From Oceanimonas aquatica (GTDB taxonomy: Bacteria; Pseudomonadota; Gammaproteobacteria; Enterobacterales; Aeromonadaceae), in contig NZ_JAVBHX010000002.1 of assembly GCF_030732065.1 (NCBI RefSeq), positions 62,001 to 126,000 on the forward strand: a stretch of 64,000 nt of DNA, written 5' to 3'. The notes under the pieces were generated by a model. It had not been told where the DNA came from. It worked only from the letters and a program-made list of their open reading frames with translations, and did not search any database. The translations under genes were made by a program, and so were the position numbers. This document shows, piece by piece, positions 35,366 through 53,021 of this stretch; position 1 is the first letter of the stretch, and each line of letters opens with the position of its first letter.

Positions 35366-35965
35366 ATGAGCAGTGTTACCCGAATGGCAAACTCCAAACT
35401 GCCTACTCCCTGGGGCACTTTTACCCTGGTCGGGTTTGAAGAAAAGGGTACAGGCAAGGATCATGCCGCCCTGGTAATGGGGGATGTCGACAGCGGTGAA
35501 CCGGTACTGGCGCGCATTCATTCCGAATGCCTGACCGGTGATGCCCTGTTCAGCCTGCGTTGCGACTGCGGTTTTCAGTTGCAGGCGGCGCTGGAGCGCA
35601 TTGCCAAGGAAGGCCGGGGCGTGCTGCTGTATGTGCGCCAGGAAGGCCGGGGTATTGGCCTGCTAAACAAGATCCACGCCTATCACCTGCAGGATCAGGG
35701 CAAGGACACGGTAGAAGCCAACGTTGAGCTGGGCTTTGCCGCCGACATGCGTGACTACACCATCTGTGCCGACATGCTGCACAGCTTGGGCGTGACCGAG
35801 CTGAAGCTGATGACCAATAACCCGCGCAAGGTCAAGGCGATGGAGAACTTTGGCATCAAGGTGAGTGAGCGCCTGCCGCTGCAGGAAGGTCGCAATCCCT
35901 TCAACGAGCATTACCTCGATACCAAGGCCGGCAAGCTGGGCCATATGCTGAAAGAGCAGGATTAA
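35366..35965 (+). CDS. ribA: GTP cyclohydrolase II RibA
   Basis: A 199-residue stand-alone enzyme making the first riboflavin intermediate from GTP. Zinc ligands occur in [18 protein letters not shown], and [12 protein letters not shown] and TNNPRK are active-site loops. AGAGGAA precedes ATG 35366. Monocistronic, with a terminator; no FMN-type leader was noticed. Confidence 0.97.
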
Positions 35966-35970
35966 TCGTT

Positions 35971-35998
35971 AATACCGGCCACGAGCCGGTATTTTTTT
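35971..35998 (+). terminator. Terminator of ribA
   Basis: AATACCGGC-cacga-GCCGGTAT followed by seven T. It also separates ribA from the convergent hydrogenase operon. Confidence 0.9.
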
Positions 35999-36057
35999 AC
36001 TGATGCGGCAGGGTTCGCCGCAAGTCACTTTGCCGGTGTCACGAAAGCCTGCCACCA

Positions 36058-36312
36058 TTACTTTTCGGCCAGACGCTGGCTCAGGTAATCCACCATTTTG
36101 GACAATTCGGTAATACCGGCAAAGTCGGTCTCGGGAATATGTATGCCCAGCTCCCGGCTCAGTGCCTCGATCAGCCGCAGAAAGTCTATCGAGTCCAGGT
36201 CCAGCTCATCGCGCATATCTTCATTCGGGTTTAGCTGGTCGGTATCCGCGTCCGGTGCTATGTCCTCAATATGACGATAAATCAGGGCTCTCAGCGCCTG
36301 TTTGTCTTTCAT
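36058..36312 (-). CDS. Acyl carrier protein, last gene of the hydrogenase-PDH operon
   Basis: 84 acidic residues with the 4'-phosphopantetheine site DELDLDSIDFL (Ser41). Shorter helices and LGIHIPE resemble stand-alone ACPs used by specialised pathways rather than the housekeeping AcpP. It overlaps the E2 stop by four bases, so it is made together with the dehydrogenase. Whether it takes acyl groups from the E2 or from the neighbouring acyl-CoA synthetase is unknown; no ketosynthase or phosphopantetheinyl transferase is nearby. Confidence 0.88.
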   Translation of the reverse strand: MKDKQALRALIYRHIEDIAPDADTDQLNPNEDMRDELDLDSIDFLRLIEALSRELGIHIPETDFAGITELSKMVDYLSQRLAEK

Positions 36313-37478
36313 TCCAGTTGCTCCGGTTGTTGCAGCAGCCGGTCAATCCGGTTGAGTAAACGGGCCCCCTCGTGGCCATCACTCACCCTGTGGTCAGCCG
36401 CCAGACTGAAACTGGCCTGGGTCATGGGGATGATGCTTTGCTCCTGCACCCAGGGCGCACTGCGCACCCGCCCGATGCCCAGCAGGGCAACCTGCGGCGG
36501 GAATATCACTCCCTGCATGCGATCCACTCCCCGCTCTCCCAGGCTGGACACGGTGACCGTCGCCTCCTGAAGCTCAGCACTGCGCAGTCCTCCTTCCCGG
36601 GCCCGGATCACCTGATCCCTGAGGGCCGTCATCATTCGCTCCACCCCCAACGAGTGCGCGTCATGAATGGCCGCCACCACCAGGCCGCCCCCTCGCAGGT
36701 GAATGACATTGCCCAGATGCACCCGGGCTTGGCTCTGATAGTGACCATCCCGGTAAAAGCCGTTGAACCGCGGAGACTCGGCCAGGGCTCTGGCCAGGGC
36801 ACAGAAAATCAGGGCATTGACCAGCACCAGTTGCCCGGTGGGCTTACCCTGATTAAAAGCCGTGCACCAGGCCTGGGCCCGCGCCAGCGGGATGTCCTGT
36901 TCCAGGTAATAATGAGGGATCTCCCGCTTGGAGCGAATCACCACGGCGGCAATGGCCTGGCGCATTTGCTGATCGCTATCCTGCTGCTTCAAAGAGGGCG
37001 CCAGGCCCTCGATATCTGCCAGCACCAGGGCGCCATCGGGCCCGCTGCCAGGCCCCAGAGTACGCCAGTCGATGCCCAGTTGCCCGGCCCGCTGGCGGGC
37101 TGCCGGGGAGATCCGGACCGAAGACGCCGCAGCGTCGGCCTGGGGGCGGACAATACTCGAGCTGGCCTGTATCGCCTCGGGCACAACCGACGCTTCGGGC
37201 TCTGCGCTGCCTGCCGCCCCTTCACTTTGCTCGGCGTCACCGGCCAGCCGCAAGCGTGCAATGGGTTCACCCACCGGCAACTGCTCTCCTGTTGGTACCA
37301 GCAGGGTGTCCACCACCCCCTCGTCGAAGACCTCCAGATCGATCAGTCCCTTCATGGTATCGATGGTAGCGATCACATCGCCTCTGTGCACCGTATCCCC
37401 GGGCTTCACCAGCCATTCGGCCACCGTGCCTTTGGCCATATCACTGCCGAAGGATGGCATTCTGATGATTTTGTTCAT
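36309..37478 (-). CDS. 2-oxoacid dehydrogenase E2 component (dihydrolipoyl acyltransferase)
   Basis: 389 residues. One lipoyl domain (about 1-80) with candidate lipoyl-Lys43 in IDTMKGLID, an Ala/Glu-rich linker, a peripheral subunit-binding domain (about 121-160, [17 protein letters not shown]) and a catalytic domain ending in the active-site motif DHRVSDG. A single lipoyl domain and the [16 protein letters not shown] start recall the acetoin/pyruvate-type E2s of split-E1 systems rather than E. coli AceF, which has three. Four-base overlaps link it to E1-beta and the ACP. No E3 gene is in the operon, so the housekeeping dihydrolipoamide dehydrogenase would be needed. Confidence 0.9.
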
Positions 37479-38458
37479 TGACCCACCATCCCTTGTGCTG
37501 CGGCCACTATGCCTTCAACCTGGGGCGTGGCGGCCAGCTCCAGGTGCCGGGGATAGGGAATGGGCACTTCGGCGCTGCACACACGTTGCGGCGGGGCATC
37601 CAGCGACCAGAAACAGTACTCCGCCACCTGAGCGCAGATTTCGCCGGCCAGGCTGCCGGTGCGCCAGCCTTCATCCACCACCAGAAGACGGTGGGTCTTG
37701 TTGACCGAAGCAAACAGGGTGTCGGTATCAAGCGGTCGCAGACAGCGCAAGTCCACCACCTCGGCGCTGATGCCCCGACCTTGCAGCACCTCGGCAGCCT
37801 CCAGCGCCTTGGGCAGGGAGCCGCCGTAGCTGAGCAGGCTGAGATCCGTGCCTTGCCGGCGTACCAGCGCCCGGTGCATGTCCGGGCATTCATCTGGCGT
37901 GGGGAGCGGCCCCGTGTTGTTGTAGAGCAGCACATGCTCAAACAGCAACACAGGGTCGGGATCTGCCAGCGCCATGGCCAGCATATAGCGGGCATCGGCC
38001 AGGGTAGCCGGTGCCAGTACCTTGAGACCGGGCACATGGGCGTACCAGTTTTCCAGGCTGTGGGAATGCTGGGCCGCCAGCTGCCGGCCGGCCCCGCAGG
38101 CCATGCGGATTACCAGCGGTACACCAATTTGTCCGCCGGACATATGGCGCAGGGTGGCGGCATTGTTGACGATCTGATCCAGTGCCAGCAGGCTGAAATT
38201 GACCGTCATCACCTCGACAATGGGTCGCATGCCCCCGAGCGCGGCCCCGATGCCCGCCCCGACGAAACCGGACTCGGACAAGGGCGTATCCCGCACACGC
38301 TGCTCGCCAAACTCCTGCAGCAGGCCCTTGGTCACCGCATAGCAGCCACCGTAATGACCCACATCCTCGCCCATCAAAAAGACCCGGGGATCCTCCCGAA
38401 TGGCTTCCCGTATGGCTTCCCGCACCGCTTCCCGGTAGCTGATGGTGGACTCATTCAT
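37475..38458 (-). CDS. Pyruvate (2-oxoacid) dehydrogenase E1 beta subunit
   Basis: 327 residues of the transketolase C-terminal type. [38 protein letters not shown] and [11 protein letters not shown] are the E1-beta signature blocks. With E1-alpha it forms the thiamine-diphosphate heterotetramer that decarboxylates the oxoacid. ATG 38458 overlaps the E1-alpha stop. Split E1 is unusual beside the homodimeric AceE normally found in Gammaproteobacteria. Confidence 0.92.
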
Positions 38459-39442
38459 GACGCAGGCTCCTGGTAGACGCCCCGGCACAACTCCGACTCG
38501 GGCTCAAACGCCGACTGCTCGGCAAAGGCGACGGCGGCGTTAATCTCCCGCCTGACGGCCTGCTCCAGTTGTTGCCACTGGTTTTCATCCAGCGCACCGT
38601 TGTGCTCCAACCGTTGTCTGAGCTGCAGTATGGGCCCCTTTTGCTGCCATTGCTCCACCTCGCCGGAGGTACGATAAAGCTGGGTATCGAACATGGAGTG
38701 ACCACGAAAGCGGTAGGTCAGGCATTCCAGAAAGCGGGGCCCTCCCCCCTGATGAATGGCTTCACAACACTCCCGCGCCGCCGCTTCCACCGCCATCACC
38801 TGCATGCCGTCCACTTCCTGCGCGGCCAGGCCGTAGCTTTCGGCTTTTCTGAAAATACGCTGCTCCGATTCGGAAAGGGCCAGGGCCGTGCCCATGGCGT
38901 AGCGATTGTTTTCACACACAAACAGCAAGGGTAATTGCCACAGCTGGGCCAGATTAAGGCTTTCGTGAAATTCCCCTTCGGCCGCCGCACCTTCACCGAA
39001 AAAACAGCAGGTCACTCGAGCGCGCCCCTGCAACTTGTCGGCCAATGCCAGCCCCACCGCCATGGGCAGGGCACCGGCGACGATGGCATTACCGCCATAG
39101 AACCGCTTTTCCTCGTCAAAAATATGCATGGAGCCGCCCCGCCCCCGGCTGCTGCCGCCAATTTTGCCGAACATTTCCGCCATTACCGCCTTCATGTCCA
39201 GCCCCCGGGCCAGGGCATGGCCGTGCTCCCGGTAGGTGGCAACCACCGCATCCTCCGCCGTCAGTGCCTGCATCACGCCTACCGCCACCGCTTCCTCGCC
39301 GATATAGAGATGCAGAAAACCACGGATTTTCTCTTCCATATACAGCTCGGCGCAGCGTTCCTCAAAGCGGCGAATACGCAGCATTTCCTGCAGCAACCGC
39401 AGCAAATGACGAGTCTCCGGCTCGTTGCCGGCCGGTTCGGGG

Positions 39443-39453
<11 letters not shown>
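38455..39453 (-). CDS. Pyruvate (2-oxoacid) dehydrogenase E1 alpha subunit
   Basis: 332 residues. The thiamine-diphosphate fold includes [24 protein letters not shown] and the Mg-ThDP motif [20 protein letters not shown]...ENN. The usual GDG is GEG here, an Asp-to-Glu change at a metal ligand that may be a family variant. [12 protein letters not shown] and TYRFRGHSM fit pyruvate E1-alpha. The start is at MNVNPEP, 11 bp inside the end of the synthetase gene; a longer frame upstream is antisense-like and rejected. Confidence 0.9.
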
Positions 39454-41215
<1,762 letters not shown>

Positions 41216-41290
41216 TGGGGGGCCTCCTGCTTGCCAGTGGCTTTACCAGCAGAATTGAGGGTTATTCAACGAAGTTTAGCCATAATCCGG

Positions 41291-42595
41291 CTATTCGCGC
41301 CGCAGTCTGAACTGCAAAAAATGGGTGGAGCAGGAAATACAGGGATCGTAGTTTCGAATCAGCCGCTCGCAGAACAGCTTGAGCTCCTGATCGCTGTGGT
41401 CCAGACCAAAGCGGGTAACCGACGCCCTGAGGTCCTGCTCAATACGGGCCTGATTCTGGCTGGTGGGCGGAATAATGGAGCAGGACAGCACTCTGCCCCG
41501 CTCGTCCAGCCGGTAATGGTGATAAATCATGCCCCTGGGTGCCTCGGTACAACAACAGCACTCACCCGCCCTGGACGTAACCGGCAGGCTGGCCTCACCT
41601 GTCGGGCACTCCTCAGCCAGCAGCCGGGAAGCCTCGAACAAGGCCCAATAAATCTCCAGTGCCCGGGCCTGAATACTGGTAAACATGTTGCGACTGGGGA
41701 ACTCAAGGCCGCAGTCCCGTGCCAGGGCACGCACCTCGGCGGACAACCGCTCAAAACCGTTATTCATTCGCGCCAGGGGGCCCACCAGATAATCCTCGCC
41801 ATCAAGCAGGGAATACAGCGCCGTGGAATGGGGCTCCTGATGCTCGGCAAAATGGTGAGCGTACTCGGAATAATCCAGGCTCAGGCCGGTACTACAGGTA
41901 ATGCGGCCGCCATTAATAGCATAGGCGTCGGGCTCGGTGAGGCTGACCCAGGTAAAGTCATGACCGTAATCGGGCAACGCCAGTTCGGCGGTCCAGCGCA
42001 CCAGCGCTTCGGCGGCGGGCAGGGCCTGTTGTACCTGACCGCGAACTTCATGCCAGCGTGCGTCATCGGGCAGGCGGCCAAAGCCGCCCACCTGCAATCC
42101 TACCGGGTGCACGGAGCGTCCGCCCAGCAGCGCCATCAGGGCATTGCCGGCCTCCTGCAACTGCATGCCCCGCTGCAGCACCTCCGGATACTCTTTGGCC
42201 ATGGCCAGAGCATGATCGAACCCCAGAAAATCGGGAGCGGCGAGAAAATGAATATGCAACGCATGACTCTGCACCCACTCCCCCAGGTTCATCAGCTTTC
42301 TTAACTGCACCAGCGGGACGGGCAGCCTGATGCCAAACAACTGCTCCATGGCCTGAATGGAGGTGAGCTGGTAGGCCATGGGACAGATGCCGCAGATGCG
42401 GGCGTTGAGATCCGGCACTTCCTGATAGCCGCGCCCTTCGAGAAACTTTTCAAACAGCCGGGGCGGCTCGAAAATGGCCAGATGCAGCTTGTCGATGCGA
42501 TTCCCTTTGGCGCTGAGCTCCAGGCTGCCTTCCCCTTCCAGCCGGGTGACGAAAGGCACCTTGAGGGCGATACGACGCCTGGCTTTTTTCGTCAC
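41291..42595 (-). CDS. hydA: Group 3b [NiFe] hydrogenase large (alpha) subunit
   Basis: 434 residues. The nickel site has both cysteine pairs: L1 RICGIC (C68, C71) and L2 DPCISCSTH (C419, C422, H425). Internal TEAPRGMIYHHY and a length near that of Pyrococcus furiosus sulfhydrogenase alpha place it in group 3b. The nine residues after His425 are expected to be removed by a maturation protease. It has a GTG start overlapping the small-subunit stop (GTGA) with GGAGGT upstream. Cytoplasmic, H2-evolving or H2-oxidising with NAD(P)(H). Confidence 0.94.
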   Translation of the reverse strand: MTKKARRRIALKVPFVTRLEGEGSLELSAKGNRIDKLHLAIFEPPRLFEKFLEGRGYQEVPDLNARICGICPMAYQLTSIQAMEQLFGIRLPVPLVQLRKLMNLGEWVQSHALHIHFLAAPDFLGFDHALAMAKEYPEVLQRGMQLQEAGNALMALLGGRSVHPVGLQVGGFGRLPDDARWHEVRGQVQQALPAAEALVRWTAELALPDYGHDFTWVSLTEPDAYAINGGRITCSTGLSLDYSEYAHHFAEHQEPHSTALYSLLDGEDYLVGPLARMNNGFERLSAEVRALARDCGLEFPSRNMFTSIQARALEIYWALFEASRLLAEECPTGEASLPVTSRAGECCCCTEAPRGMIYHHYRLDERGRVLSCSIIPPTSQNQARIEQDLRASVTRFGLDHSDQELKLFCERLIRNYDPCISCSTHFLQFRLRRE

Positions 42596-43392
42596 TCGTC
42601 CACCTCCCGCACATCAATGGGTTGCCAGCGCAGGACCTGCTCGCGAAAGGGGGCGCTGTGGCTGTGAATGGCAGCAAAACGCCGGGCAATGTCGTCGGGG
42701 AGCAGGCCCAGACCGGTAAAACGGTTGGCCAGACTGTCGCAATTGGGCAGCTCGGAAGGCCCGAAGCAGCCATAGCAGGCCCGACCAAAGGCGGGACAGA
42801 GGGCGCCACAACCGGTGCGCACCACGGGCCCCAAACAGGGCGCGCCCTTGGTGACCATGACGCACACCTGCTGGCGGCGCTTGCATTCCATGCACAGCTT
42901 TTCGGCCTCGGGGCGAGGCTGCACGCCCAGGCGCAACTGGCGCAGAAAATGGCGCATCTGCTCGAGCGTAATGGGGCACCCCCACAACTCGAAGTCCACC
43001 CTGATGTGTTCGGCCACCCCGGTGGAGGTATCCAGGGTAGCGATAAAGTCCGGGTGAGCATAAATGGCCGCTTTCCAGCCCGGGCCATCCGCCATATTGC
43101 GCAGGGCCTGAATGCCGCCGCTGGTGGCACAGGCGCCCATGGTCACCACCAGCCTGCTGTTGCGGCGAAGGGCTTTGGCCCGTGCCAGATCTTCCGGGGT
43201 GGAGATACTGCCCTCGACCAGAGCCAGATCCACCTTTTTGTCCGGCCCCTCAATGCCCGCCTCGATAAAATGCACAAACTCCACTTCTTCGAGCAGTGCC
43301 AGCAGCGCCGGCCCCTGATTGAGCAAGGCCAGCTGGCAGCCGGAGCAAGAAGTCAGCTTGTGTACCGCCAGGGTAAGCCTTGGCCTGCTCAT
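42592..43392 (-). CDS. hydD: Group 3b [NiFe] hydrogenase small (delta) subunit
   Basis: 266 residues without a Tat signal, so cytoplasmic. TSCSGCQLALL (C16, C19) begins the proximal iron-sulfur site, GACATSGG and WGCPIT give further ligands, and CxxC clusters in CMECKRRQQVC and TGCGALCPAFGRACYGCFG bind additional [4Fe-4S] centres. One-base overlap (TGATG) with the gamma-subunit stop. Confidence 0.92.
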   Translation of the reverse strand: MSRPRLTLAVHKLTSCSGCQLALLNQGPALLALLEEVEFVHFIEAGIEGPDKKVDLALVEGSISTPEDLARAKALRRNSRLVVTMGACATSGGIQALRNMADGPGWKAAIYAHPDFIATLDTSTGVAEHIRVDFELWGCPITLEQMRHFLRQLRLGVQPRPEAEKLCMECKRRQQVCVMVTKGAPCLGPVVRTGCGALCPAFGRACYGCFGPSELPNCDSLANRFTGLGLLPDDIARRFAAIHSHSAPFREQVLRWQPIDVREVDE

Positions 43393-44210
43393 CAGACACC
43401 CTCCCTGCCCAGCCAGGACCTGATCTCGGGGTAATGAAACACCGGGCCGTCCTTGCAAACAAAATACGGACCCAGCTGGCAGTGACCACACAACCCCCGG
43501 CCACACTGAAAGTTGCGCTCCAGACTCAGATACACGGCCTCATCCGCCACCTGCAGCCGCGCCAGTTGTTTCAGGGCCGCCATCATCATGATCTCGGGGC
43601 CACACATCAGCACCGCGCAATGGCCGGGATCAAACTCCGCCAGCTCCAGCAACTCGGTCACCAGCCCGAGGCGCCAGCGGTGTCGGTGACGGTGCTCTTC
43701 GCTGGCGGCCAACAGTACCTGACACTTGCCCAGGGTTTGCCAGCGCCGGTACTGGGCCTGCCATAGCAAGTCGGCATGGTGCTTGACCCCTTGCAGGATC
43801 ACGATGCGGCCATACTGATCCCGGTTGATCAGCGCATGGTGAATGGCCGCCACCACGGGGGCACAGCCCAGCCCGGCGGTGATAAACACCAGATCCCGAC
43901 CTTGCAGTTGCGCCAGCGGCCAGCCCTGGCCAAAGGGGCCGCGCAGGCCCAGCTGCTGGCCAACGTCCAGCGCCACCAGGGGCCGCGTGACCCGGCCCAC
44001 AGCGCGAATGGTGTGCTGCAACAGGCCCTGATGCCAACCCATGATGGAAATGGCCACCTCACCGGCACCAAACAGATAAAGCATGTTGAACTGGCCGTAG
44101 TCGAAGTCGAACGGGGAGCGGGTTTCCAGCGCCAGACTCAGGGTATGTACCCCCGGCACCTCCATGGTTTTGGCCGCCAGGGTGGCGACCATGGGCACAC
44201 CATCAGCCAT
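43392..44210 (-). CDS. hydG: Hydrogenase gamma subunit, FAD/NAD(P)-binding diaphorase
   Basis: 272 residues of the ferredoxin-NADP reductase fold. GQFNMLYLFGAGEVAISI binds flavin, GLRGPFGQGWP and ITAGLGCAP bind the pyridine nucleotide, MCGPEIMM closes the NAD(P) site, and CGRGLCGHCQLG...C is a [2Fe-2S] cluster motif. It connects the hydrogenase to NAD(P)H. The start at MADGVPMV follows an AGGAGG-rich site and overlaps the beta-subunit stop by eight bases. Confidence 0.92.
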   Translation of the reverse strand: MADGVPMVATLAAKTMEVPGVHTLSLALETRSPFDFDYGQFNMLYLFGAGEVAISIMGWHQGLLQHTIRAVGRVTRPLVALDVGQQLGLRGPFGQGWPLAQLQGRDLVFITAGLGCAPVVAAIHHALINRDQYGRIVILQGVKHHADLLWQAQYRRWQTLGKCQVLLAASEEHRHRHRWRLGLVTELLELAEFDPGHCAVLMCGPEIMMMAALKQLARLQVADEAVYLSLERNFQCGRGLCGHCQLGPYFVCKDGPVFHYPEIRSWLGREGV

Positions 44211-45312
44211 GCTCCCCCTCCTTCGGTGTTTCCAGCAGGGCGTGGGCCTCTTCCACCAGATCGATGGCCACCGGACACCAGGCAATGCAACGACCGCAAC
44301 CCACGCAGCCACTGCGGCCAAATTGCTGCTGCCAGGTGGCCAGCTTGTGCACCAGCCATTGCCGGTAGCGGTGTTGAATTTTATGGCGGACCACCTTGCC
44401 GGTGATGTAGCTGTGCTGCTCACTGAAACAGGAGTCCCAGCGCTGCACCTGCTCGGCCTGCCGGTTACGAATGTCGCCTTCGGAGTCCTGTTTCGAGCAG
44501 AAACAGGTGGGGCAAACCGAGGTGCAGTTGCCGCAGGCCAGGCAACGCTCGGCCACCTGCTGCCAGCGAGGGTGATCGAGCCGGTCTACCAGTTGCGCCA
44601 GCTCGGCGGTAGCGGGCATGGTTCGCTGTTGTCGGCGGGCCCCTGCCAGCGCGGTTTTCGCCTCGTTCAGTTGCTGAACGCTGGCCTTGTTCAGGGGTAA
44701 GTGCGCCGCGATGGCGTCGCCTTCAGCGCTGCCGGTTTGCAGCAGGTAGCCGTCATCCAGCTCATCCAGCAATAGATCAAAGCCGAAACGGGCCTCGGGG
44801 CCATCGCCGGTCGAGACGCAAAAGCAGGTGTCGGCGCTGCGGCCGCAATTGACCGCCACCATAAAGAGTTGCTCGCGCTGGGCCCGGTAAAAGGGATCGG
44901 CATAAGGGCCGTCGAGAAAGTGTTGATCCTGGATTTTCAGCGCCGCCAGATCACAGCCCCGCAGACCGATAAACGCGAGCCGCTCAGGGCTCGGCTCAAC
45001 GGCGCGAAAATTCAGGCCGGTTTCGGTGTGCTCGGCCCGCCACAGTACTTGTTCCGGCTGAAACAGCCAGGGCTTCAGGCCCTGGGGGCCGGTGTTCCAG
45101 GCAAAGGCGCGGCGACCGGCGGTGTGCTGCAGGCGGTAGCGGCCAGCATCGGCCTGCTCCTGCCAGCCCCAGGGCAGGTCGTCAACCTGTTCAAGAGGCG
45201 CAAACACAATGGTATCGTCTTTCACGCGAGGGCCAATCACCTCATAACCGGCCTGCACCAGGGCCTGATGCAGCCGGTTCAGGTGCCTTCGCGGCAGAAA
45301 ACGCCGGCTCAT
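44203..45312 (-). CDS. hydB: Hydrogenase beta subunit, 4Fe-4S electron carrier
   Basis: 369 residues. The N-terminal part has conserved Cys-containing blocks (GLRGCDLAAL, NCGRSADTCFC), and the C-terminal part two [4Fe-4S] motifs: CLACGNCTSVCPTCFC and CVGCGRCIAWCP. It is of the anaerobic sulfite reductase A / sulfhydrogenase beta family and carries electrons between the flavin subunit and the NiFe dimer. ATGA overlap with hypB. Confidence 0.92.
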   Translation of the reverse strand: MSRRFLPRRHLNRLHQALVQAGYEVIGPRVKDDTIVFAPLEQVDDLPWGWQEQADAGRYRLQHTAGRRAFAWNTGPQGLKPWLFQPEQVLWRAEHTETGLNFRAVEPSPERLAFIGLRGCDLAALKIQDQHFLDGPYADPFYRAQREQLFMVAVNCGRSADTCFCVSTGDGPEARFGFDLLLDELDDGYLLQTGSAEGDAIAAHLPLNKASVQQLNEAKTALAGARRQQRTMPATAELAQLVDRLDHPRWQQVAERCLACGNCTSVCPTCFCSKQDSEGDIRNRQAEQVQRWDSCFSEQHSYITGKVVRHKIQHRYRQWLVHKLATWQQQFGRSGCVGCGRCIAWCPVAIDLVEEAHALLETPKEGEHG

Positions 45313-46049
45313 ACGCGCGCGCTCAGCAGCCAGTCATACCAGGCATTCATCCCTCCGCCGGTACTGGCCGACAGCACCAGAATGTCGACATTGGGGTTCA
45401 GGCGGCGCAGGGAGGTCTTTATCTTTTCCAGATCGATATCCAGGTAAGGCAGCAGATCGGCCTTGTTGATAATGGCCAGCTCGCAGCCGGCAAACAGATG
45501 GGGGTATTTTTCCGGTTTGTCGTCGCCGTCGGTCACCGCCATCATGGCGACACGGTGCTGTTCGCCCAGATCGAACAGCGCCGGGCATACAAGGTTGCCG
45601 ACGTTTTCGACCAGCACCAGAGAGCCGGGCGATGGTGCCAGACTGGCCAGGCCCGCCTGTATCATTTGTGCATCCAGGTGGCAGCCGGTGCCGGTGTTGA
45701 TCTGCACCGCCCGGCCGCCGCTGGCCTGAATGCGCCTGGCATCATTCCGGGTTTGTTGATCCCCTTCCAGCACCGCCATCGACGGCCAGCCTGCCTGCGT
45801 TTGGGCATAAGCAAAGCTGGCTTCCAGCAACCGGGTCTTGCCGGCACCCGGGGTGCCCATCAGATTGATGCAGCTGATGTGGTTTTCAGTCAGCCAGTCG
45901 CGATTTTGCCGGGCCAGTTCATCATTGCCGGCCAGCAGCGCCTGCTGCAACTGCAGGCTGTCACCGTCATGATGCAAATGACGATGTGACCCGGTTCCCG
46001 GCTCCGACAGCCGGGCCTTGTCGCCGGAACATCCACAATGACCACACAT
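45309..46049 (-). CDS. hypB: Hydrogenase nickel-insertion GTPase HypB
   Basis: 246 residues. An N-terminal CGHCGC nickel site is followed by a short His cluster (HRHLHHDG) that may store metal. The GTPase domain has GTPGAGKTRLLE (Walker A), VENVGNLVCPA and NKADLLPY (G4). It delivers Ni together with HypA. One-base overlap with the hypA stop. Confidence 0.94.
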   Translation of the reverse strand: MCGHCGCSGDKARLSEPGTGSHRHLHHDGDSLQLQQALLAGNDELARQNRDWLTENHISCINLMGTPGAGKTRLLEASFAYAQTQAGWPSMAVLEGDQQTRNDARRIQASGGRAVQINTGTGCHLDAQMIQAGLASLAPSPGSLVLVENVGNLVCPALFDLGEQHRVAMMAVTDGDDKPEKYPHLFAGCELAIINKADLLPYLDIDLEKIKTSLRRLNPNVDILVLSASTGGGMNAWYDWLLSARV

Positions 46050-46375
46050 CAGCCGAATCCTATTTCCGTTAACAGCAGTTGTCGTCCAGAAATCAAAGTA
46101 TAGTCATAGCCGCCACAGGGGCAGTTCTCTCCCGGGCCGGTCGGGGCAAAGTGCCGGCCGCAGTCCCGGCATTCGGCCTGAGCCGGCACCGCCTCGATGA
46201 TAAGCTCAGCGCCGCCCAGGCCGGCGTCTTGTTTCACCATGTCAAAACAAAACTGCAGCCGTTCACCATCCACGCAGCTCATGGCGCCCACCTCGACGGT
46301 GATGCGGCTGATCACCCTGTGCTGATAGGGCTTGAGCTCGGTCAGCAGGGCCCGCACCACCGAAAGTTCATGCAT
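46049..46375 (-). CDS. hypA: Hydrogenase nickel metallochaperone HypA
   Basis: 108 residues starting MHELSVVRAL; the N-terminal Met-His-Glu is the nickel site. The zinc domain reads CRDC ... CPCGG, so the second pair is CxC where E. coli HypA has CxxC, which is odd. ATG 46375 is fixed by the conserved MHE start and lies two bases after the hypE stop; in-frame codons upstream belong to hypE in another frame. Confidence 0.92.
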   Translation of the reverse strand: MHELSVVRALLTELKPYQHRVISRITVEVGAMSCVDGERLQFCFDMVKQDAGLGGAELIIEAVPAQAECRDCGRHFAPTGPGENCPCGGYDYTLISGRQLLLTEIGFG

Positions 46376-46377
46376 AA

Positions 46378-47412
46378 TCAGCAGATCCGTGGCAATTGCA
46401 GGCCATGGGGCACCTCCAGCAGCCGCGCGCCGCCATAAGGACCGAGCAGGCTGAGCCGCCCCGGGGACGCCGACGCCAATACCTCGCCGATAATGCGGGC
46501 ATGCCGGCCCAGGGGATGAGCACGCCACAACGCCAGTGCCTGTTCCGCCTGCTCGGGGGCAATCACCATGGCGGCCAGCCCTTCATTGGCCAGCAGCAGC
46601 GGCTCCAGCCCCAGCAGTTCGCACAATGCCTGGGTCTGCGGGCGAAGGGGCAGTTCCTGTTCGGTCAGCCGAATCTCCACCGATGATGCCTCGGCCATTT
46701 CGTTCAGCACACCGCCCAGACCGCCGCGGGTGGCATCGCGCAGACAGCGTACGCCAGCACATTGCGCCAGCACTGGCTGGATCAGCGTGTGCAGGGCGGC
46801 ACAGTCGCTGGCAAGCTCCCCCACCAGCCCCAGCTCTTCCCGGGCCAGCATGACGGCGGCGCCGTGATCCCCCACATGGCCGTTGATCAGCACTCTGTCG
46901 CCGGGCCGCGCCGCGCCGATGGACAGGTTCAGCTCCGCCGGGATCACGCCCACACCTGTGGTGTTGATAAAGAGTTTGTCGGCCATGCCCCGCTCCACCA
47001 CCTTGGTATCGCCGGTAACGATGGTGACACCGGCCTGGCGCGCGGCTGCGGCCATGGAGCCGACCAGGCGCGCAAGCAAGGTCAGGGGCAGCCCTTCCTC
47101 GATAATGAAGGCGGCACTTAAATAAAGCGGCATGGCGCCGCCCACGGCCAGATCGTTAATGGTGCCACACACCGCCAGCTTGCCGATGTCGCCCCCGGGA
47201 AATTCCAGCGGGCTGACCACAAAGCTGTCGGTGGTCAGGGCCAAGCGATCTCCCTGAGCCAGCAGACCGGCCAATGGCAACCGGGCCTGATCCTCCTTTT
47301 GCAGCAAGGGAGTGTCGCCAAAGGCGGTGAGAAAGAGGGAGTCAATCAGCTGATGCATGGCCCCGCCCCCGGCCCCGTGGGCCAGGGTGATGGTGGCGTG
47401 TTCATTGCTCAC
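46378..47412 (-). CDS. hypE: Hydrogenase maturation factor HypE
   Basis: 344 residues of the PurM/ThiL fold. It turns the carbamoyl group passed by HypF into a cyanide ligand on its C-terminal cysteine; the chain indeed ends in PRIC. LAHGAGGGAMHQLI at the start and VTGDTKVVERGMAD are typical. Overlaps hypD by 11 bp. Confidence 0.96.
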   Translation of the reverse strand: MSNEHATITLAHGAGGGAMHQLIDSLFLTAFGDTPLLQKEDQARLPLAGLLAQGDRLALTTDSFVVSPLEFPGGDIGKLAVCGTINDLAVGGAMPLYLSAAFIIEEGLPLTLLARLVGSMAAAARQAGVTIVTGDTKVVERGMADKLFINTTGVGVIPAELNLSIGAARPGDRVLINGHVGDHGAAVMLAREELGLVGELASDCAALHTLIQPVLAQCAGVRCLRDATRGGLGGVLNEMAEASSVEIRLTEQELPLRPQTQALCELLGLEPLLLANEGLAAMVIAPEQAEQALALWRAHPLGRHARIIGEVLASASPGRLSLLGPYGGARLLEVPHGLQLPRIC

Positions 47413-48529
47413 TGCCGACCTCCTCGGGGCGATATTGATGGTAGGCGGCGCAGGCCCCCTCGCTCGACACCATCAGGGCGCCCACCGGGTGCTCGGGGGT
47501 GCACTGGCGGCGAAACAGGGGGCACTGATGGGGCTTGATCCGGCCGGTGAGTACTCCATTGCACCAGACGGGTTCATCGGCGGCCCTGACCGGCTCAAGT
47601 GTGGCCAGCAGCTCGGTCGCATCCAGATGCTGGTATTGCGTCCGTATTCGCACGCCCGAGCCCAGCACCCGGCCAAGGCCGCGCCAGTGGCCGTCAATGC
47701 CCGACTCAAACGCCTGTTTCATCGCCTTCAGGGCGGCCGGGTTGCCTGCATCCGCCACTACCCGGGCATAGGCGTTTTCAATCTCGCAGCGGCCCTGATC
47801 CAGTTGCTGCACCAGCTGATACAGGGCCTGCAAAAAGTCCACCGGCTCAAAACCGGCGATCACCAGAGGTTTATGATAGTGGTGGGCAATGGGGGCATAC
47901 ACTCGGCGTCCGATCACCATGCTGACGTGCCCTGGCCCGATAAAACCATCGAGCTGCACCTCACCGGCTTCAAGCAGACCCGTCAGGGTCGGCATCAGCC
48001 GAATATGATGGCAGATAAAGCGCAGGTTGCCGATGCCCGCCCGGTCGGCGGCCAGCAGGGAACAGGCGGTACCGGGCATGGTGGTATCAAAGCCGATGGC
48101 AAAAAACACCACCTGCTTGTGGGGGTTGGCATTGGCCAGGGCCAGGGCGTCATAGGGAGAATAAAGCACTTTCACCTCGGCCCCCTCGGCTTTGGCCTGC
48201 AGCAAGCTGCCCCGGCTGCCGGGTACCCGCAGCGGATCGCCAAAGCTTGCAAGGATCACGTTCTGCTGCCGGGCCAGGCTGACGGCCTGATCCACCGCGT
48301 CCACCGGCAGCACGCATACCGGGCAGCCGGGGCCGTGAATAAACTCGATGGACTCAGGCAACAGCTGGTGCAGGCCAAAACGAAAGATGGCATGGGTATG
48401 GCCACCGCACACTTCCATGATCTGCAGGGGCCGGCCCAGGCGTGCCGCCACCCGCTCAGCCACGGGGGTAATGGCCGCCAGCTGCGCCTTCACTCGGGTT
48501 GCATCACGAAAGTCTGTGTTAGGGCTCAT
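47402..48529 (-). CDS. hypD: Hydrogenase maturation factor HypD
   Basis: 375 residues. An iron-sulfur scaffold for Fe(CN)2CO assembly with HypC. MEVCGGHTHAIFRFG, HGPGCPVCVLP, FAIGFDTTMPGTA and the C-terminal cysteines of the [4Fe-4S] cluster are all present. It starts at MSPNTDF, 11 bp before the hypC stop. Confidence 0.96.
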   Translation of the reverse strand: MSPNTDFRDATRVKAQLAAITPVAERVAARLGRPLQIMEVCGGHTHAIFRFGLHQLLPESIEFIHGPGCPVCVLPVDAVDQAVSLARQQNVILASFGDPLRVPGSRGSLLQAKAEGAEVKVLYSPYDALALANANPHKQVVFFAIGFDTTMPGTACSLLAADRAGIGNLRFICHHIRLMPTLTGLLEAGEVQLDGFIGPGHVSMVIGRRVYAPIAHHYHKPLVIAGFEPVDFLQALYQLVQQLDQGRCEIENAYARVVADAGNPAALKAMKQAFESGIDGHWRGLGRVLGSGVRIRTQYQHLDATELLATLEPVRAADEPVWCNGVLTGRIKPHQCPLFRRQCTPEHPVGALMVSSEGACAAYHQYRPEEVGSEQ

Positions 48530-48770
48530 GGCTTGCTTCCATTTGCGCCAGCAGGGCCAGGGTGCGCTCGGCTTCCTGCTGATCAATCCGCGCCATGGCA
48601 AAGCCCACATGCAGCAGCACCCACTCTCCCACCAGGGCCGACAGCGCCCGGTCGTCGGCGGCAAGCAGGGCAAGATTGATTTGCCGGCGCACCCCGGCGG
48701 TTTCCGCCAGCGCCAGCCCGGCGTCGGCATCCACAATGGCCACCACCTGAGCCGGTATTCCCAGACACAT
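48519..48770 (-). CDS. hypC: Hydrogenase assembly chaperone HypC
   Basis: 83 residues beginning MCLGIPAQVV, with the iron-carrying Cys2 of the MCxGIP motif. It binds HypD and then the large-subunit precursor. 14-bp gap after hypF. Confidence 0.95.
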   Translation of the reverse strand: MCLGIPAQVVAIVDADAGLALAETAGVRRQINLALLAADDRALSALVGEWVLLHVGFAMARIDQQEAERTLALLAQMEASHEP

Positions 48771-48784
48771 AAGCGACTCCTTTC

Positions 48785-51595
48785 TCAGTGCGGGTTAACC
48801 CGATCGGGCCGCCATTGCGCCAGGGCGATGGCGGCCTGGCCCAGGGCAATGCCGCCATCGTTGCAGGGCGCCTGACGTTGGGTCAGCACCGTCAGGCCCA
48901 TGGCTTCCAGCGTCTCAGTCAGGGCCGTCAGCAGCCGGCGATTTTGCATCACCCCCCCGCTCAGGGCGACGACGCCAAAGCCCCCTTGCTGTTGCAGCTG
49001 CTGCACCATTCGGCACAGGCCTTTCACTAAACTTAGGTGAAAATTGGCCGCCAGCACCGCTTCGCTCTCGCCGCTCAGCAGGGATTGGATCATCAGGGGC
49101 CACATGGGGCTCGGATCCAGTTGCCAGAGCTCGCCTTCGCGGCTTAGCGTGACGTCATAGCAGGTGTTGGCCTGCGCCCCCTGGGCCAGGCTTTCCAGCT
49201 TCATCGCCGCTTCCCCTTCAAAGCTCTGTTCGACAGGCGCCACGCCCAGCAGCGCCGCCACCGCATCGAACAATCGCCCCGCCGAGGACGTGAGCGGAAA
49301 ACGCGGCGCCATGGCCAGCAAGGCCCCGGCGTTATTGCTGAACAGTAACGGACAGCGTGGTTGCAGTTCCGGCCAGGCAGAAAAGGACACCGGCTGGGCC
49401 AGCAGGTTGCGCCAGGGCTGGCGGCTGGCCTGATCCCCCCCCAGCAGAGGAAAAGGCCGCAGCCGCCCCAGCCGGCGGTAACCGGCGTAATCCGCCAGCA
49501 GGAACTCCCCGCCCCACAGACTGCCATCATCACCCAGGCCCAGGCCGTCGAGTACCATGCCCAGCACCGGCTCATGGGGCTCATGACCGTTTTCCACCAG
49601 ACAGGACACCAGATGGGCGTGATGATGCTGCACCCGGTACAACGGCAGCCCGCCCTCCTTTGCCAGGCAAACGCCCAGGCGGGTGGCGGCATAATCGGCA
49701 TGCAAATCGACGGCAATGGCTCTGGGACTCATACCCAGCAACACCGACAGGTGCTTCGCTTCCTGCCGCAGCGCATCCAGGCAGGCCGGACTGCTCAGAC
49801 TGCCAATATGGGCAGACAGCACCGCCCGGCCTGAGCCGGCCAGGCAGCAACTGTTTTTCAAATCCGCCCCCAGCGCCAGCACGGTGCCGTTCAGCCCGGC
49901 GGGCAGAGGGATGGGATCCGGTACAAAGCCCCGGGCCCGGCGAACCAGCCTTGGCCGACCGGCCACCACGGACAGCACCGAATCGTCACAGCGGTTAACA
50001 ATGGGCCTGTTGTGCAGCAAAAAGCCGTCGGCCAGAGGGGCCAGCGCCGACAGCGCCTGCCGGTTACCGGTACATATGGGCTCTCCACCGGCATTGCCCG
50101 AGGTCATCACCAGCGGGCTGCCCATCCCGGTCAGTAACAGCCAGTGCAGCGGCGAGCTCGCCACCATGACGCCAAGGTGTGCCAGCCCCGGCGCCAGGGC
50201 CTCGACCGCCATGCCCGGTGCCGGCGTTCTAAGCCGTGCCCTGGGCAACAGCACAATGGGGGCCGCCGGGCTGCTCAGCTGTGCCCGCTCGGCGTCATTC
50301 AGTTCAAAACAGGCCTCCACCTGGGCCAAATCCCGCATCATGATCGCAAAGGGCTTGGCGGGTCTATGCTTGCGCTCGCGCAGTATCGCAATGGCCGCTG
50401 CCGAGCCGGCATCACAGGCCAGCTGAAACCCGCCAATGCCCTTGAGCGCCAGCACTCTGTCCTGTTTCAGCCAGGTGGCACATTGCGCCAGCAGGCTTGC
50501 CGCGGTTCCCTGCCTGTTCTGCCCATCGGCGGTTTGCAGCCAGAGATGCGGCCCGCAAACGGCACAGGCCACGGGCTCGGCATGAAAACGCCGGTTGGCG
50601 GGATGGGTATATTCCTCAAGGCAGGCGGCGCACAGGGGAAAGTCCGCCATGGCGGTATGGGCCCTGTCCCAGGGCAGCGCCCGCACAATGGAATAGCGGG
50701 GGCCACAGTTCGTACAGTTGATAAAGGGGTAGCCCTGGCGCCGGTCGGTTGGGTCGTTCAGCTCCGCCAGACACTGCGGACAAACGGCCAGATCCGGCGG
50801 GATCCGGGCGCCCTGCCCCTTCGTCCGGCTGTTGACCACCACAAACTCACGGGGAGCGGACACCCAGTCAAAGGGCTCGGTATCTATACGCTCAATGTGA
50901 GCATGAGGCGGACACTCGGCCCGCAGCCGCCGGCAAAATGCCGCCACGGTTGGCGCATCGGCGGCCAGCCGAATCTCTACCCCGGCGCCGATATTGCCGA
51001 CCTCCCCCGCCAGACCGAGCCCGGTGGCCAGCCGGTAGACGAAGGGACGAAAGCCCACCCCCTGTACGCACCCGGCAAGTTGCAGGCGGTAGCCCTGCCG
51101 CGCTTCGTTCACCGGGGCGGGCGGCATCAGCTCTTTGGTCACGTAGTCATGCAGACGCCGGCACAATGCCGGCAGCGCCTCGGCAACCTCGTCGCTGAGC
51201 TCGAGCGTACAGGGCGTAAAATGCTGTGCGCCAATCACCATCAGATCGACAACCGGGGCCGGTGATACCAGTGGCGGCACCAGCGCCAGCAGCCCCTTGA
51301 TGCCGCCGCCATGCTCAGGCGCGTCGCTGCCCGCCAGCGTCTGTGCCGACACATTACACAACAGGCTAATTCCGCCGGCGCGCTTCGCCGTTAAAAAAGC
51401 ATCCACCAGTATGACGCGCCGGCAATGGCGAAACAGCGGCAGCAGGCTCACGCCCCCCGTGCCGCCGTCCACCAGCTCGACCTCATCGGGCCAGGAAAAG
51501 GTCCGGCACAGGGCCAGCGCGCCCATGCCGGCGGCATCGTCCCCCCGCAGAGGATTTCCCAGAAACACAATCCGCACTTCGGCGTCCGCTGTCAT
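48785..51595 (-). CDS. hypF: Fusion of HycI-type maturation protease with carbamoyltransferase HypF
   Basis: 936 residues, against about 750 for ordinary HypF. Residues 1-155 form a hydrogenase maturation endopeptidase: GNPLRGDDAAG with D20, VILVDAF with D65 and PEHGGG with H95, matching the nickel-sensing Asp/Glu, Asp and His of the HybD/HycI family. HypF follows: acylphosphatase (about 168-255, GCVQGVGFRPF), two zinc fingers (CPQC...CTNC, CAAC...CAVC), a YrdC domain (KHRPAKPFAIM) and a Kae1-like domain with VQHHHAHLVS. One chain may therefore supply the carbamoyl group and later clip the large subunit. GGAGG before ATG 51595 decides the start. It is the first gene of the 15-gene operon. Confidence 0.92.
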   Translation of the reverse strand: MTADAEVRIVFLGNPLRGDDAAGMGALALCRTFSWPDEVELVDGGTGGVSLLPLFRHCRRVILVDAFLTAKRAGGISLLCNVSAQTLAGSDAPEHGGGIKGLLALVPPLVSPAPVVDLMVIGAQHFTPCTLELSDEVAEALPALCRRLHDYVTKELMPPAPVNEARQGYRLQLAGCVQGVGFRPFVYRLATGLGLAGEVGNIGAGVEIRLAADAPTVAAFCRRLRAECPPHAHIERIDTEPFDWVSAPREFVVVNSRTKGQGARIPPDLAVCPQCLAELNDPTDRRQGYPFINCTNCGPRYSIVRALPWDRAHTAMADFPLCAACLEEYTHPANRRFHAEPVACAVCGPHLWLQTADGQNRQGTAASLLAQCATWLKQDRVLALKGIGGFQLACDAGSAAAIAILRERKHRPAKPFAIMMRDLAQVEACFELNDAERAQLSSPAAPIVLLPRARLRTPAPGMAVEALAPGLAHLGVMVASSPLHWLLLTGMGSPLVMTSGNAGGEPICTGNRQALSALAPLADGFLLHNRPIVNRCDDSVLSVVAGRPRLVRRARGFVPDPIPLPAGLNGTVLALGADLKNSCCLAGSGRAVLSAHIGSLSSPACLDALRQEAKHLSVLLGMSPRAIAVDLHADYAATRLGVCLAKEGGLPLYRVQHHHAHLVSCLVENGHEPHEPVLGMVLDGLGLGDDGSLWGGEFLLADYAGYRRLGRLRPFPLLGGDQASRQPWRNLLAQPVSFSAWPELQPRCPLLFSNNAGALLAMAPRFPLTSSAGRLFDAVAALLGVAPVEQSFEGEAAMKLESLAQGAQANTCYDVTLSREGELWQLDPSPMWPLMIQSLLSGESEAVLAANFHLSLVKGLCRMVQQLQQQGGFGVVALSGGVMQNRRLLTALTETLEAMGLTVLTQRQAPCNDGGIALGQAAIALAQWRPDRVNPH

Positions 51596-51673
51596 TCTGC
51601 CTCCCGTCCTGTGGCCGGCATGCTTTCCCGATACGCCCATGCTTCAACTATGGCTCAGAATCCTTCACCAATG

Positions 51674-51700
51674 AAAACGGGCGCCGCAGCGCCCGTTTTT
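51674..51700. terminator. Bidirectional terminator between the symporter gene and the hydrogenase operon
   Basis: AAAACGGGCGC-cgca-GCGCCCGTTTT, 20 bp after the symporter stop. The hydrogenase promoter must lie in the 78 bp between this hairpin and 51595, or transcription reads through. Confidence 0.88.
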
Positions 51701-51719
51701 ATGACACAGGGGTGACCCC

Positions 51720-53021
51720 TTACTCCTTGCCAAAGTGCACGTCTTCTTCCTTTTCACCGGCATGAGGGTCGTGGAAGCGGATCAGGTTCATGGCCCCTTC
51801 GCTTTTGCCGACAATACAGGTGACCACGGCGTCACCGGTAATGTTGACGGCGGTGCGGATCATGTCGAGCAGGCGGTCCACGCCGATGATCAGCGCAATG
51901 CCTTCCACCGGCAGCCCCACCTGGTTCAGCACCATGGCCAGCATCACCATGCCCACCCCGGGCACACCGGCGGTACCCACCGATGCCAGGGTCGCGGTCA
52001 GGATCACCATCAGGTAATCATTGAAGGTAAGATCAATGTTAAAGGCCTGGGCGATAAAGGCGGTGGCCACCCCCTGCATGATGGCGGTACCGTCCATATT
52101 AATGGTGGCGCCCAGGGGCACGGTAAAGGACGCCACCCGGTTTTCCACGCCCATGCGACGGGTAGTGGTCTCGAGGGTGACGGGAATGGTGGCGTTGGAC
52201 GAGGCGGTAGAAAAGGCAAACATCACCGCGTCTTCCATCTTTTTGAGAAACACCAGCGGATTAAGACCGGTAAGCACCCGGAACAGGCTGGTATAGGTCA
52301 CCAGGGCGTGCAGCAGCAGGGTACCCGCCAGCACCAGGAAGTAACCGATGAGGTTGAGAATGGCGTCCAGCCCCAGGCTGGTGAACAGCTGGGCCATCAG
52401 GCAGAACACCCCAAAGGGAGCCAGGTTCATCAGCAGCGCCACCAGCTTCATGATCACTTCGTTAAGATCGACAAACAGCGCCGCAATCCGCTCTCCCGCC
52501 CTGCCCGCCAGACTGATGGCAATGCCGAACAACACCGCAAACACGATAATCTGTAGGGTATTGCCCTGGGCCATGGCGTTAATGGGGTTGGTGGGGAACA
52601 TGTTGATGATCACCTCGGCCAGGGATGGCGCTTCCCGGGCGGCAAAGGTGCTCGATGAGACCAGATCGGCACCGTCGCCGGGCCGGAACAACTCGCCCAT
52701 CACCAGTGCCAGGGTAATGGCCACGGCGGTGGTAAACAGGTAAAGCGCCAGGGTTTTGCCCCCCAGCCGCCCCAGGGTGGAGATGTCTTTCAGGGAGCTG
52801 GTGCCACACACCAGAGAAACGAAGATCAGCGGCACCACCAGCATGTTGAGGCTGGCAATGAAAATCTTGCCCCCCACCAGCAGCAGACCATTGACCAGAA
52901 CGTCCTGTACCAGGTCGCTATCGGCAAAGAAGCTGCGAATAATAAACCCGGTCAGCACACCCAAACCCATGCCCAGCAACACGCGCGTGGTAAGCGACCA
53001 TTTTTTCTCGCTCGCATTCAT
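51720..53021 (-). CDS. Dicarboxylate/amino acid:cation symporter (DAACS family)
   Basis: 433 residues with about eight membrane helices and two re-entrant loops. STASSNATIPVT and ATINMDGTAIMQG are the substrate-binding HP1 and TM7 motifs of the GltP/DctA/GltT family, and NITGDAVVTCIV lies in TM8. The substrate (glutamate/aspartate or C4-dicarboxylate) cannot be read from the sequence. Start at MNASEKKW after AGGAGT. A CRP-like site lies about 150 bp upstream. Confidence 0.93.
   Translation of the reverse strand: MNASEKKWSLTTRVLLGMGLGVLTGFIIRSFFADSDLVQDVLVNGLLLVGGKIFIASLNMLVVPLIFVSLVCGTSSLKDISTLGRLGGKTLALYLFTTAVAITLALVMGELFRPGDGADLVSSSTFAAREAPSLAEVIINMFPTNPINAMAQGNTLQIIVFAVLFGIAISLAGRAGERIAALFVDLNEVIMKLVALLMNLAPFGVFCLMAQLFTSLGLDAILNLIGYFLVLAGTLLLHALVTYTSLFRVLTGLNPLVFLKKMEDAVMFAFSTASSNATIPVTLETTTRRMGVENRVASFTVPLGATINMDGTAIMQGVATAFIAQAFNIDLTFNDYLMVILTATLASVGTAGVPGVGMVMLAMVLNQVGLPVEGIALIIGVDRLLDMIRTAVNITGDAVVTCIVGKSEGAMNLIRFHDPHAGEKEEDVHFGKE

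What the first reader, a model, noticed from the sequence alone, without database searches (positions are those of the whole stretch)
36058..51595. A 15-gene operon joins a group 3b hydrogenase with its full maturation set, acetyl-CoA synthetase, a split pyruvate dehydrogenase and an ACP
All genes lie on one strand, with 11 of 14 junctions overlapping by 1-11 bp and the widest gap being 75 bp. Group 3b hydrogenases move electrons between H2 and NAD(P)H. Tying one to acs, E1/E2 and ACP in a single unit suggests that acetyl-CoA formation and NADH made by the E1/E2 complex (with a shared E3) are balanced by H2 release, or the reverse under H2 uptake. The combined order hypF-C-D-E-A-B-hydBGDA-acs-pdhA-pdhB-pdhC-acp is not a standard textbook cluster.
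Basis: partly seen in the sequence, partly recalled or inferred. Interest (0 to 1): 0.85.

Follow-up and report, generated by a model that had tools for sequence, protein, structure and literature searches.

The report
Low-oxygen hydrogenase and pyruvate-dehydrogenase tandem
A bacterium related to marine species carries, side by side, a hydrogen-handling enzyme and a second pyruvate-to-acetyl-CoA enzyme set; a few distant bacteria keep both in islands that look made for low oxygen, which suggests, but does not prove, a shared way of disposing of electrons.

Summary
The array is real: 15 co-directional genes, 11 of 14 junctions overlapping, widest gap 75 bp. "hypF" is a fusion of the M52 maturation protease with HypF. 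It is best read as two modules in tandem. Module 1 (hycI-hypF, hypCDEAB, hydBGDA) is a group 3b-type hydrogenase. Module 2 (acs-pdhA-pdhB-E2-acp) is a widespread cassette; none of 17 stretches fetched around its acs in other Gammaproteobacteria held hydA. It is cleanly absent after hydA in Oceanimonas marisflavi. In two closely related loci a divergent ppsA separates it from hydA. A 24-bp element upstream of acs is partly kept in the window's gap, suggesting an internal promoter. Still, the association recurs: Burkholderia and Rhodococcus plasmid islands carry both modules 19-28 kb apart, with ppsA. Elsewhere acs often has an FNR/Anr-type box (11 of 26 upstream regions, 0.2 expected; 0 of 7 here). 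Most likely role: hypoxic pyruvate oxidation with electrons vented as H2. Direction, co-transcription and ACP function are untested.

The parts
48785..51595 (-). hycI-hypF fusion: M52 hydrogenase maturation protease joined to carbamoyltransferase HypF
   Evidence: HycI 37.9 bits; TIGR00072 65.1 bits and TIGR00143 757 bits, both above cut-off; start at 51595 or 51640
48519..48770 (-). hypC
   Evidence: TIGR00074
47402..48529 (-). hypD
   Evidence: TIGR00075
46378..47412 (-). hypE (GTG start)
   Evidence: TIGR02124
46049..46375 (-). hypA
   Evidence: TIGR00100, 71.9 bits, below its cut-off of 88.1
45309..46049 (-). hypB
   Evidence: TIGR00073
44203..45312 (-). hydB, iron-sulfur subunit of group 3b-type hydrogenase
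   Evidence: NF040833/NF040829, below equivalog cut-offs
43392..44210 (-). hydG, FAD/NAD(P)-binding diaphorase subunit
   Evidence: NCBIfam below cut-offs
42592..43392 (-). hydD, small subunit
   Evidence: NF040836/NF040831, below cut-offs
41291..42595 (-). hydA, NiFe large subunit with both CxxC motifs and C-terminal DPCISCSTH
41265..41288 (-). conserved element GGATTATGGCTAAACTTCGTTGAA upstream of acs: candidate internal promoter
   Evidence: 19 of 24 identical to L028/L030; 0 of 200 shuffles each
39443..41215 (-). acs, AMP-forming acetate-CoA ligase (PRK04319 type)
38455..39453 (-). pdhA, E1-alpha
   Evidence: TIGR03182
37475..38458 (-). pdhB, E1-beta
   Evidence: NF006667
36309..37478 (-). 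E2 dihydrolipoamide acyltransferase with one lipoyl domain
36058..36312 (-). acyl carrier protein of the cassette, DSID motif (DSMD in most relatives)
51641..51719 (-). spacer before hycI-hypF: strong hairpin followed by CCATAGTTGA, candidate main promoter

Best explanation
Two co-directional modules of a low-oxygen metabolism set in tandem, probably two overlapping transcription units: a promoter before hycI-hypF and an internal one before acs, with read-through possible. Under oxygen limitation the second, non-housekeeping E1/E2 (borrowing an E3 such as the one encoded near aceE) would oxidise pyruvate to acetyl-CoA and NADH. The soluble hydrogenase would reoxidise NAD(P)H by releasing H2. 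Acs would interconvert acetyl-CoA and acetate, possibly in reverse to gain ATP from AMP and PPi. The dedicated ACP would serve as an acyl partner of Acs and/or E2. Shown: gene content, order, separability, co-occurrence and conserved upstream sequence. Inferred: promoter function, direction of the reactions, low-oxygen induction in this organism, and the ACP's role.
For: Cassette and hydrogenase share islands in B. savannae and two Rhodococcus lineages, with ppsA, universal stress proteins and, in DK17, a GAF sensor kinase plus response regulator. Of 13 plasmid records with HydA at 40% identity or more over at least 97% of the query, 6 hold a cassette-type E2, against 30 of 72,556 records overall; collapsed to 3 lineages with both close by, hypergeometric p about 1e-8 (ignores plasmid size). 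FNR-type boxes (at most 1 mismatch) upstream of acs in 11 of 26 other regions against 0.20 expected. M. smegmatis Hyd3 genes rise 7.6- to 67-fold at 0.6% oxygen saturation, and the up-regulated cluster near DevR/DevS includes phosphoenolpyruvate synthase (23-fold, p = 0.08) (PMC2799521, passages). Divergent ppsA between hydA and acs in L028 and L030 (L028 copy above both ppsA cut-offs). Conserved acs-upstream element. Window proteins keep the HydA cysteines, E2 lipoyl Lys and catalytic His/Asp, ACP Ser, and the Acs Trp and Lys (roles of the last two recalled). The genome has one aceE match over cut-off, an lpd about 2 kb from it, and no second NiFe hydrogenase.
Against: No FNR-type box upstream of acs in 7 of 7 Aeromonadaceae. 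Outside this family no adjacent cassette was found in the other 70 of 79 HydA loci, many cut by contig ends. In the class sample, of 9 genomes with both, 2 have them on one contig, 127 and 388 kb apart, and 7 on different contigs. On plasmids, 24 of 30 records with the cassette-type E2 lack such a HydA, and 7 of 13 with the HydA lack such an E2. In M. smegmatis a putative pyruvate dehydrogenase is down-regulated under hypoxia (PMC2799521). The genome has pta, so acetate formation need not depend on Acs. The element before acs marks no wider regulon: exact hits only at G000 and G009, and inexact hits no commoner than the reversed control.
Confidence: 0.55

Rival explanations
1. Chance neighbours: the array arose when the ppsA between two independent units was lost, and the two modules are regulated and used separately.
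For: ppsA between the modules in L028 and L030, which are close relatives of each other; cassette absent in O. marisflavi at the same site; no hydA in any of 17 stretches of up to 20 kb around acs in other Gammaproteobacteria; conserved element before acs.
Against: Recurrent co-location in Rhodococcus and Burkholderia islands; enrichment on plasmids and in genomes; in 13 same-genus genomes the 4 with the cassette's acs all have the hydrogenase, which 6 have in all.
Confidence: 0.22
2. H2-uptake mode: the hydrogenase makes NAD(P)H from H2 while Acs activates acetate; the tandem supports mixotrophic assimilation.
For: AMP-forming Acs normally runs toward acetyl-CoA, and group 3b enzymes are reversible (both general knowledge, not from a call).
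Against: A pyruvate-oxidising E1/E2 in the same overlapping cassette is not needed for acetate assimilation (inference); low-oxygen setting of relatives.
Confidence: 0.13
3. ACP-centred biosynthesis: acs, E1/E2 and ACP deliver acetyl units to an ACP-bound product such as a lipid or storage compound, and the hydrogenase balances the NAD(P)H.
For: A dedicated ACP with the attachment Ser in 29 of 29 aligned copies; acs-acp pairs without PDH in 3 stretches, L136, L138, L139; wax-ester/TAG synthases in the Rhodococcus islands.
Against: No ketosynthase or other ACP-dependent enzyme among the 15 genes; no ACP chemistry tested.
Confidence: 0.1

Closest known systems
Mycobacterium smegmatis Hyd3 (msmeg_3931-3927) in a hypoxia-induced cluster near DevR/DevS
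   Same: beta-gamma-delta-alpha subunits plus an M52 peptidase; phosphoenolpyruvate synthase among the up-regulated genes (PMC2799521, passages)
   Different: No acs-PDH-ACP cassette is mentioned in the passages read (acetyl-CoA synthetase occurs 0 times in that text); here the protease is fused to HypF and a full hyp set precedes the hydrogenase
Burkholderia cenocepacia low-oxygen-activated (lxa) locus
   Same: An island with USPs, heat-shock protein, BON protein, cytochrome c, phosphate acetyl/butyryltransferase and phosphofructokinase (PMC6127331, passages and section 7); similar genes stand near the cassette on plasmids
   Different: Neither hydrogenase nor acs-PDH-ACP is among the lxa proteins of that table, which lists only proteins of changed abundance; the paper with the full gene list was not held
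Group 3b NAD(P)-linked sulfhydrogenase
   Same: The four best PDB matches of HydA are a cytosolic NiFe-hydrogenase alpha subunit and sulfhydrogenase 1 alpha (5yxy, 9nez, 9e15, 9e1j); four subunits
   Different: NCBIfam sulfhydrogenase equivalog scores far below cut-off (246.5 of 700 bits)
acsA-pdhA-pdhB-E2-acp cassette on plasmids of alpha- and betaproteobacteria and Rhodococcus
   Same: Same five genes in the same order
   Different: Not directly adjacent to a hydrogenase in the stretches read; a single longer pdhA gene and no separate beta gene in the three roseobacters read

Membership tests
Group 3b [NiFe]-hydrogenase | Large subunit with N- and C-terminal CxxC nickel ligands and a conserved C-terminal site | tested here: met
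   C,C,C,C,H in 9 of 9 aligned HydA including the window (11 loci given; L145 and L146 were not in the indexed set and dropped out)
Group 3b [NiFe]-hydrogenase | Closest solved relatives are cytosolic sulfhydrogenases | tested here: met
   best four chains
Group 3b [NiFe]-hydrogenase | Score above the NCBIfam sulfhydrogenase equivalog cut-offs | tested here: not met
   246.5 of 700 and 219.8 of 880 bits; I take these equivalogs to be narrower than the 3b group (not tested), hence the wording 3b-type
Group 3b [NiFe]-hydrogenase | NAD(P)-linked H2 turnover | not testable with these tools
   NAD-binding domain in hydG; no activity data
Pyruvate dehydrogenase complex (alpha-beta E1 type) | E1-alpha, E1-beta and E2 with lipoyl, E3-binding and catalytic domains; an E3 in the genome | tested here: met
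   E3 candidate over cut-off at G000:C19:169591-170952
Pyruvate dehydrogenase complex (alpha-beta E1 type) | Substrate is pyruvate | not testable with these tools
   family match only (TIGR03182)
FNR/Anr-controlled low-oxygen gene set | TTGAT-N4-ATCAA box before the cassette | tested here: not met
   0 of 7 Aeromonadaceae; 11 of 26 elsewhere
Single operon of hydrogenase plus acs-PDH-ACP | Unbroken linkage conserved among relatives | tested here: not met
   ppsA between in L028 and L030; absent in L022 and L024
Single operon of hydrogenase plus acs-PDH-ACP | One promoter and co-transcription | not testable with these tools
   conserved element before acs hints at a second promoter

The most novel reading that the evidence does not exclude
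Bacteria as far apart as Actinomycetota and Proteobacteria share a transferable anoxia module: hydrogenase 3b, ppsA and a dedicated ACP-linked acs-PDH. It lets aerobes ferment pyruvate to acetate and H2 while making ATP from AMP through reversed Acs and PpsA, with ACP carrying the acetyl group between E2 and Acs.
Probability: 0.15. Interest if true: 0.85.

Novelty: new variant of a known kind. Interest (0 to 1): 0.52.

Why it matters
How aerobes dispose of electrons when oxygen vanishes is only partly understood. A recurrent pairing of a hydrogenase with its own pyruvate dehydrogenase, Acs and ACP would name a likely electron source for that hydrogenase, and the marine Aeromonadaceae include isolates in which each half could be deleted. 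Relatives with the hydrogenase but without the cassette, such as Oceanimonas marisflavi, offer a ready comparison.

Tried and rejected
A conserved single operon was rejected as the general case. FNR regulation here was sought and not found. A sigma-70 promoter scan of 35900-51800 found none, with 2.9 expected by chance. A wider regulon of the acs-upstream element was sought and not found. A first test of that element missed it in L028 (13 of 24, and 16 of 24 for L068 against L028) because the L028 stretch had been cut at an over-long ppsA start; one search repeated it with the stretch upstream of acs. The acs hit in Zobellella maritima (L024, 121 bits) looked like a remnant at first; it is a FadD, so that idea was dropped. 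A resemblance of the element to a sigma-S extended -10 is recalled, not tested.

Literature. No paper held all terms for group 3b, hydrogenase, PDH, ACP and gene cluster, for acs, PDH, ACP, ppsA, USP and hydrogenase, or for six Rhodococcus/DosR hypoxia terms, and none held five of six DosR/Rhodococcus metabolic terms. Thirteen papers and six held related terms; I saw their listings only and opened none, so they may bear on this. In one search five papers named three of Oceanimonas, Oceanisphaera, Zobellella and hydrogenase; hydrogenase occurred in none (listing). Papers opened: PMC6127331 (passages and section 7) and PMC2799521 (passages). Absence in print is not shown.

Rows dropped: the 7 Aeromonadaceae leave out L030 and L013, which are cut at contig ends; one search printed no row for the small loci L001-L008 and L014-L021; one search found no ACP of at least 35 bits in 3 of 32 loci (L135, L140, L141).
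Full report
Check of the observation. The 15 genes are intact, co-directional and tightly packed; 11 of 14 junctions overlap by 1-11 bp and the widest gap, hydA-acs, is 75 bp. Of 9 Aeromonadaceae loci that show both parts, 6 have this fusion (window, L010 of G002, L022, L026, L027, L068) and 3 have separate genes (L023, L024, L028).

Identity. HydA is closest in the PDB to a cytosolic NiFe-hydrogenase and sulfhydrogenase 1 and keeps the nickel ligands and the C-terminal site. NCBIfam equivalog cut-offs are not reached, so "3b-type" is the safe wording. Acs is the PRK04319 type (863 bits; best PDB chain 9g79); the Trp and Lys that I recall as acetate-pocket and acylation residues are kept in 32 of 32 aligned copies. 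E2 keeps the lipoyl Lys in 25 of 26 copies and the catalytic His in 26 of 26; the catalytic Asp column reads otherwise in L120 and L121, and L068, whose E2 is split over two frames, has a gap at the Lys. ACP keeps the attachment Ser in 29 of 29. The genome has an aceE on contig C19 with an lpd about 2 kb further on, pta, one ppsA over the cut-off at C12:173100-175448, and no second NiFe hydrogenase. The cassette is thus a second PDH without its own E3.

Local evolution. Among 13 same-genus genomes (own included), hydA is in 6 and the cassette's acs in 4, all within the 6. O. marisflavi (L022; G003 by matching coordinates) has the same neighbours, the transporter before and ribA-cmk-rpsA after, but goes from hydA straight to ribA (ribA and cmk confirmed in L022, rpsA in the window). 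Z. maritima (L024) has no cassette in the 10 kb after hydA. O. litoralis (L023) ends about 690 bases past hydA, but G007, which seems to be the same genome, has no acs orthologue (best 39% identity). In L028 and L030 a ppsA on the opposite strand stands between hydA and acs; L030 lies on a contig of G009, a near relative of L028. Trees of hyd, hyp and cassette proteins all join the window with the Zobellella group, and hyd and cassette both join L068 with L025. But L028 moves between trees, and several nodes are weak (support 0.15 to 0.68). I infer early co-residence of the modules, loss of the cassette in some species, and loss of the second ppsA in the window's line. Joint transfer is not excluded: the G012, L028 and L024 copies have other neighbours.

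Promoter evidence. A 24-base stretch 2 bases after hydA's stop in the window matches 19 of 24 bases upstream of acs in L028, L030, L068 and L025, with 0 of 200 base shuffles reaching it each time. These are two pairs of near relatives, so two independent comparisons. In L009 the match to L028 is weaker (17 of 24, 1 of 200), and its best match to L068 lies elsewhere, near the ribosome-binding site. Upstream of hycI-hypF, CCATA[GT]TTGA is readable in 8 of the 9 printed regions, all but L024 (no test made). No terminator-like site is listed in the hydA-acs gap. One or two transcripts are both possible.

Wider distribution. The cassette acsA-pdhA-pdhB-E2-acp lies on plasmids of Methylocystis, Sinorhizobium, Cupriavidus, Burkholderia and Rhodococcus; Tropicibacter, Leisingera and Sulfitobacter have one long pdhA and no separate beta gene. 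In 369 sampled Gammaproteobacteria, 18 have an acs match at E up to 1e-130, the window's genome included. Of the other 17, 11 show E1, E2 and acp beside acs, 3 acs-acp only, 2 acs only, and 1 ends at a contig end; none of the 17 stretches holds hydA. HydA at E up to 1e-80 is in 90 of 369, own included. Overlap is 9 of 17 against 80 of 351 (Fisher p 0.008; by genus 7 of 13 against 63 of 258, p 0.026). Of the 9, two have both on one contig, 127 and 388 kb apart; seven have them on different contigs.

Islands with both. B. savannae pMSMB0266 has ppsA, the hydrogenase with hyp genes, then the cassette, about 19 kb from hydA to E2. Rhodococcus DK17 and R. qingshengii have hydA and E2 about 22 and 28 kb apart, with ppsA, a PfkB-type kinase, USPs and wax-ester synthases. 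Of 13 plasmid records with HydA at 40% identity or more (and at least 97% coverage; 60 of 91 records listed), 6 hold a cassette-type E2 (30 records of 37% or more among the 60 listed of 632). Three of the 6 are DK17 relatives, and the Streptomyces pair lies over 1 Mb apart. The hypergeometric values ignore plasmid size and relatedness. Against: the Pandoraea and Paraburkholderia islands have the hydrogenase without the cassette in the stretches read.

Oxygen link. Within 250 bp upstream of acs, 11 of 26 non-Aeromonadaceae regions hold TTGAT-N4-ATCAA with at most one mismatch against 0.20 expected from dinucleotide shuffles; some rows are close relatives (L134 and L137), and the 26 include six that do not show a full cassette. 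None of 7 Aeromonadaceae does. In M. smegmatis, Hyd3 and ppsA belong to a cluster up-regulated at low oxygen near DevR/DevS, while a putative pyruvate dehydrogenase goes down (PMC2799521, passages). The B. cenocepacia lxa locus shares the island style, not this cassette, in the table read (PMC6127331, section 7).

Mechanism. I favour hypoxic pyruvate oxidation with H2 as electron sink. ATP formation by reversed Acs is reported for Syntrophus aciditrophicus (PMC4992975, title and start of abstract in a listing) and is only a possibility here. Function, direction and ACP chemistry are inference.

Verdict. The "one operon" claim is weaker than stated.

Noticed in passing
window 48785-51595: M52 maturation protease fused to HypF; 6 of 9 Aeromonadaceae loci fused, 3 separate.
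   Followed up: partly
L068 14895-16411: The E2 gene of Oceanisphaera psychrotolerans is spread over two overlapping frames, so it may be broken there.
   Followed up: no
window 55871-58720: 949-aa protein joining fructose IIA-HPr with PTS enzyme I, beside fruK and fruA.
   Followed up: no
window 28493-28666: Lysine riboswitch on the minus strand.
   Followed up: no
L136, L138, L139: acs followed by the cassette-type ACP without PDH genes in the stretch, which hints that ACP works with Acs.
   Followed up: no
L056, L062, L064, L076, L099: Weak ATPase beta-subunit matches (62-78 bits), two per locus, downstream of hydA in Neptuniibacter loci.
   Followed up: no
L044, L061, L069, L075, L078: A ppsA match (851-910 bits) lies within a few kilobases of the 3b-type hydrogenase genes in further lineages without the cassette nearby.
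   Followed up: partly
L124 (Photobacterium sp. DA100): Cassette followed by ppsA, then hydG- and hydB-like matches of about 120 bits on the other strand without hydA or hydD; nature unresolved.
   Followed up: no
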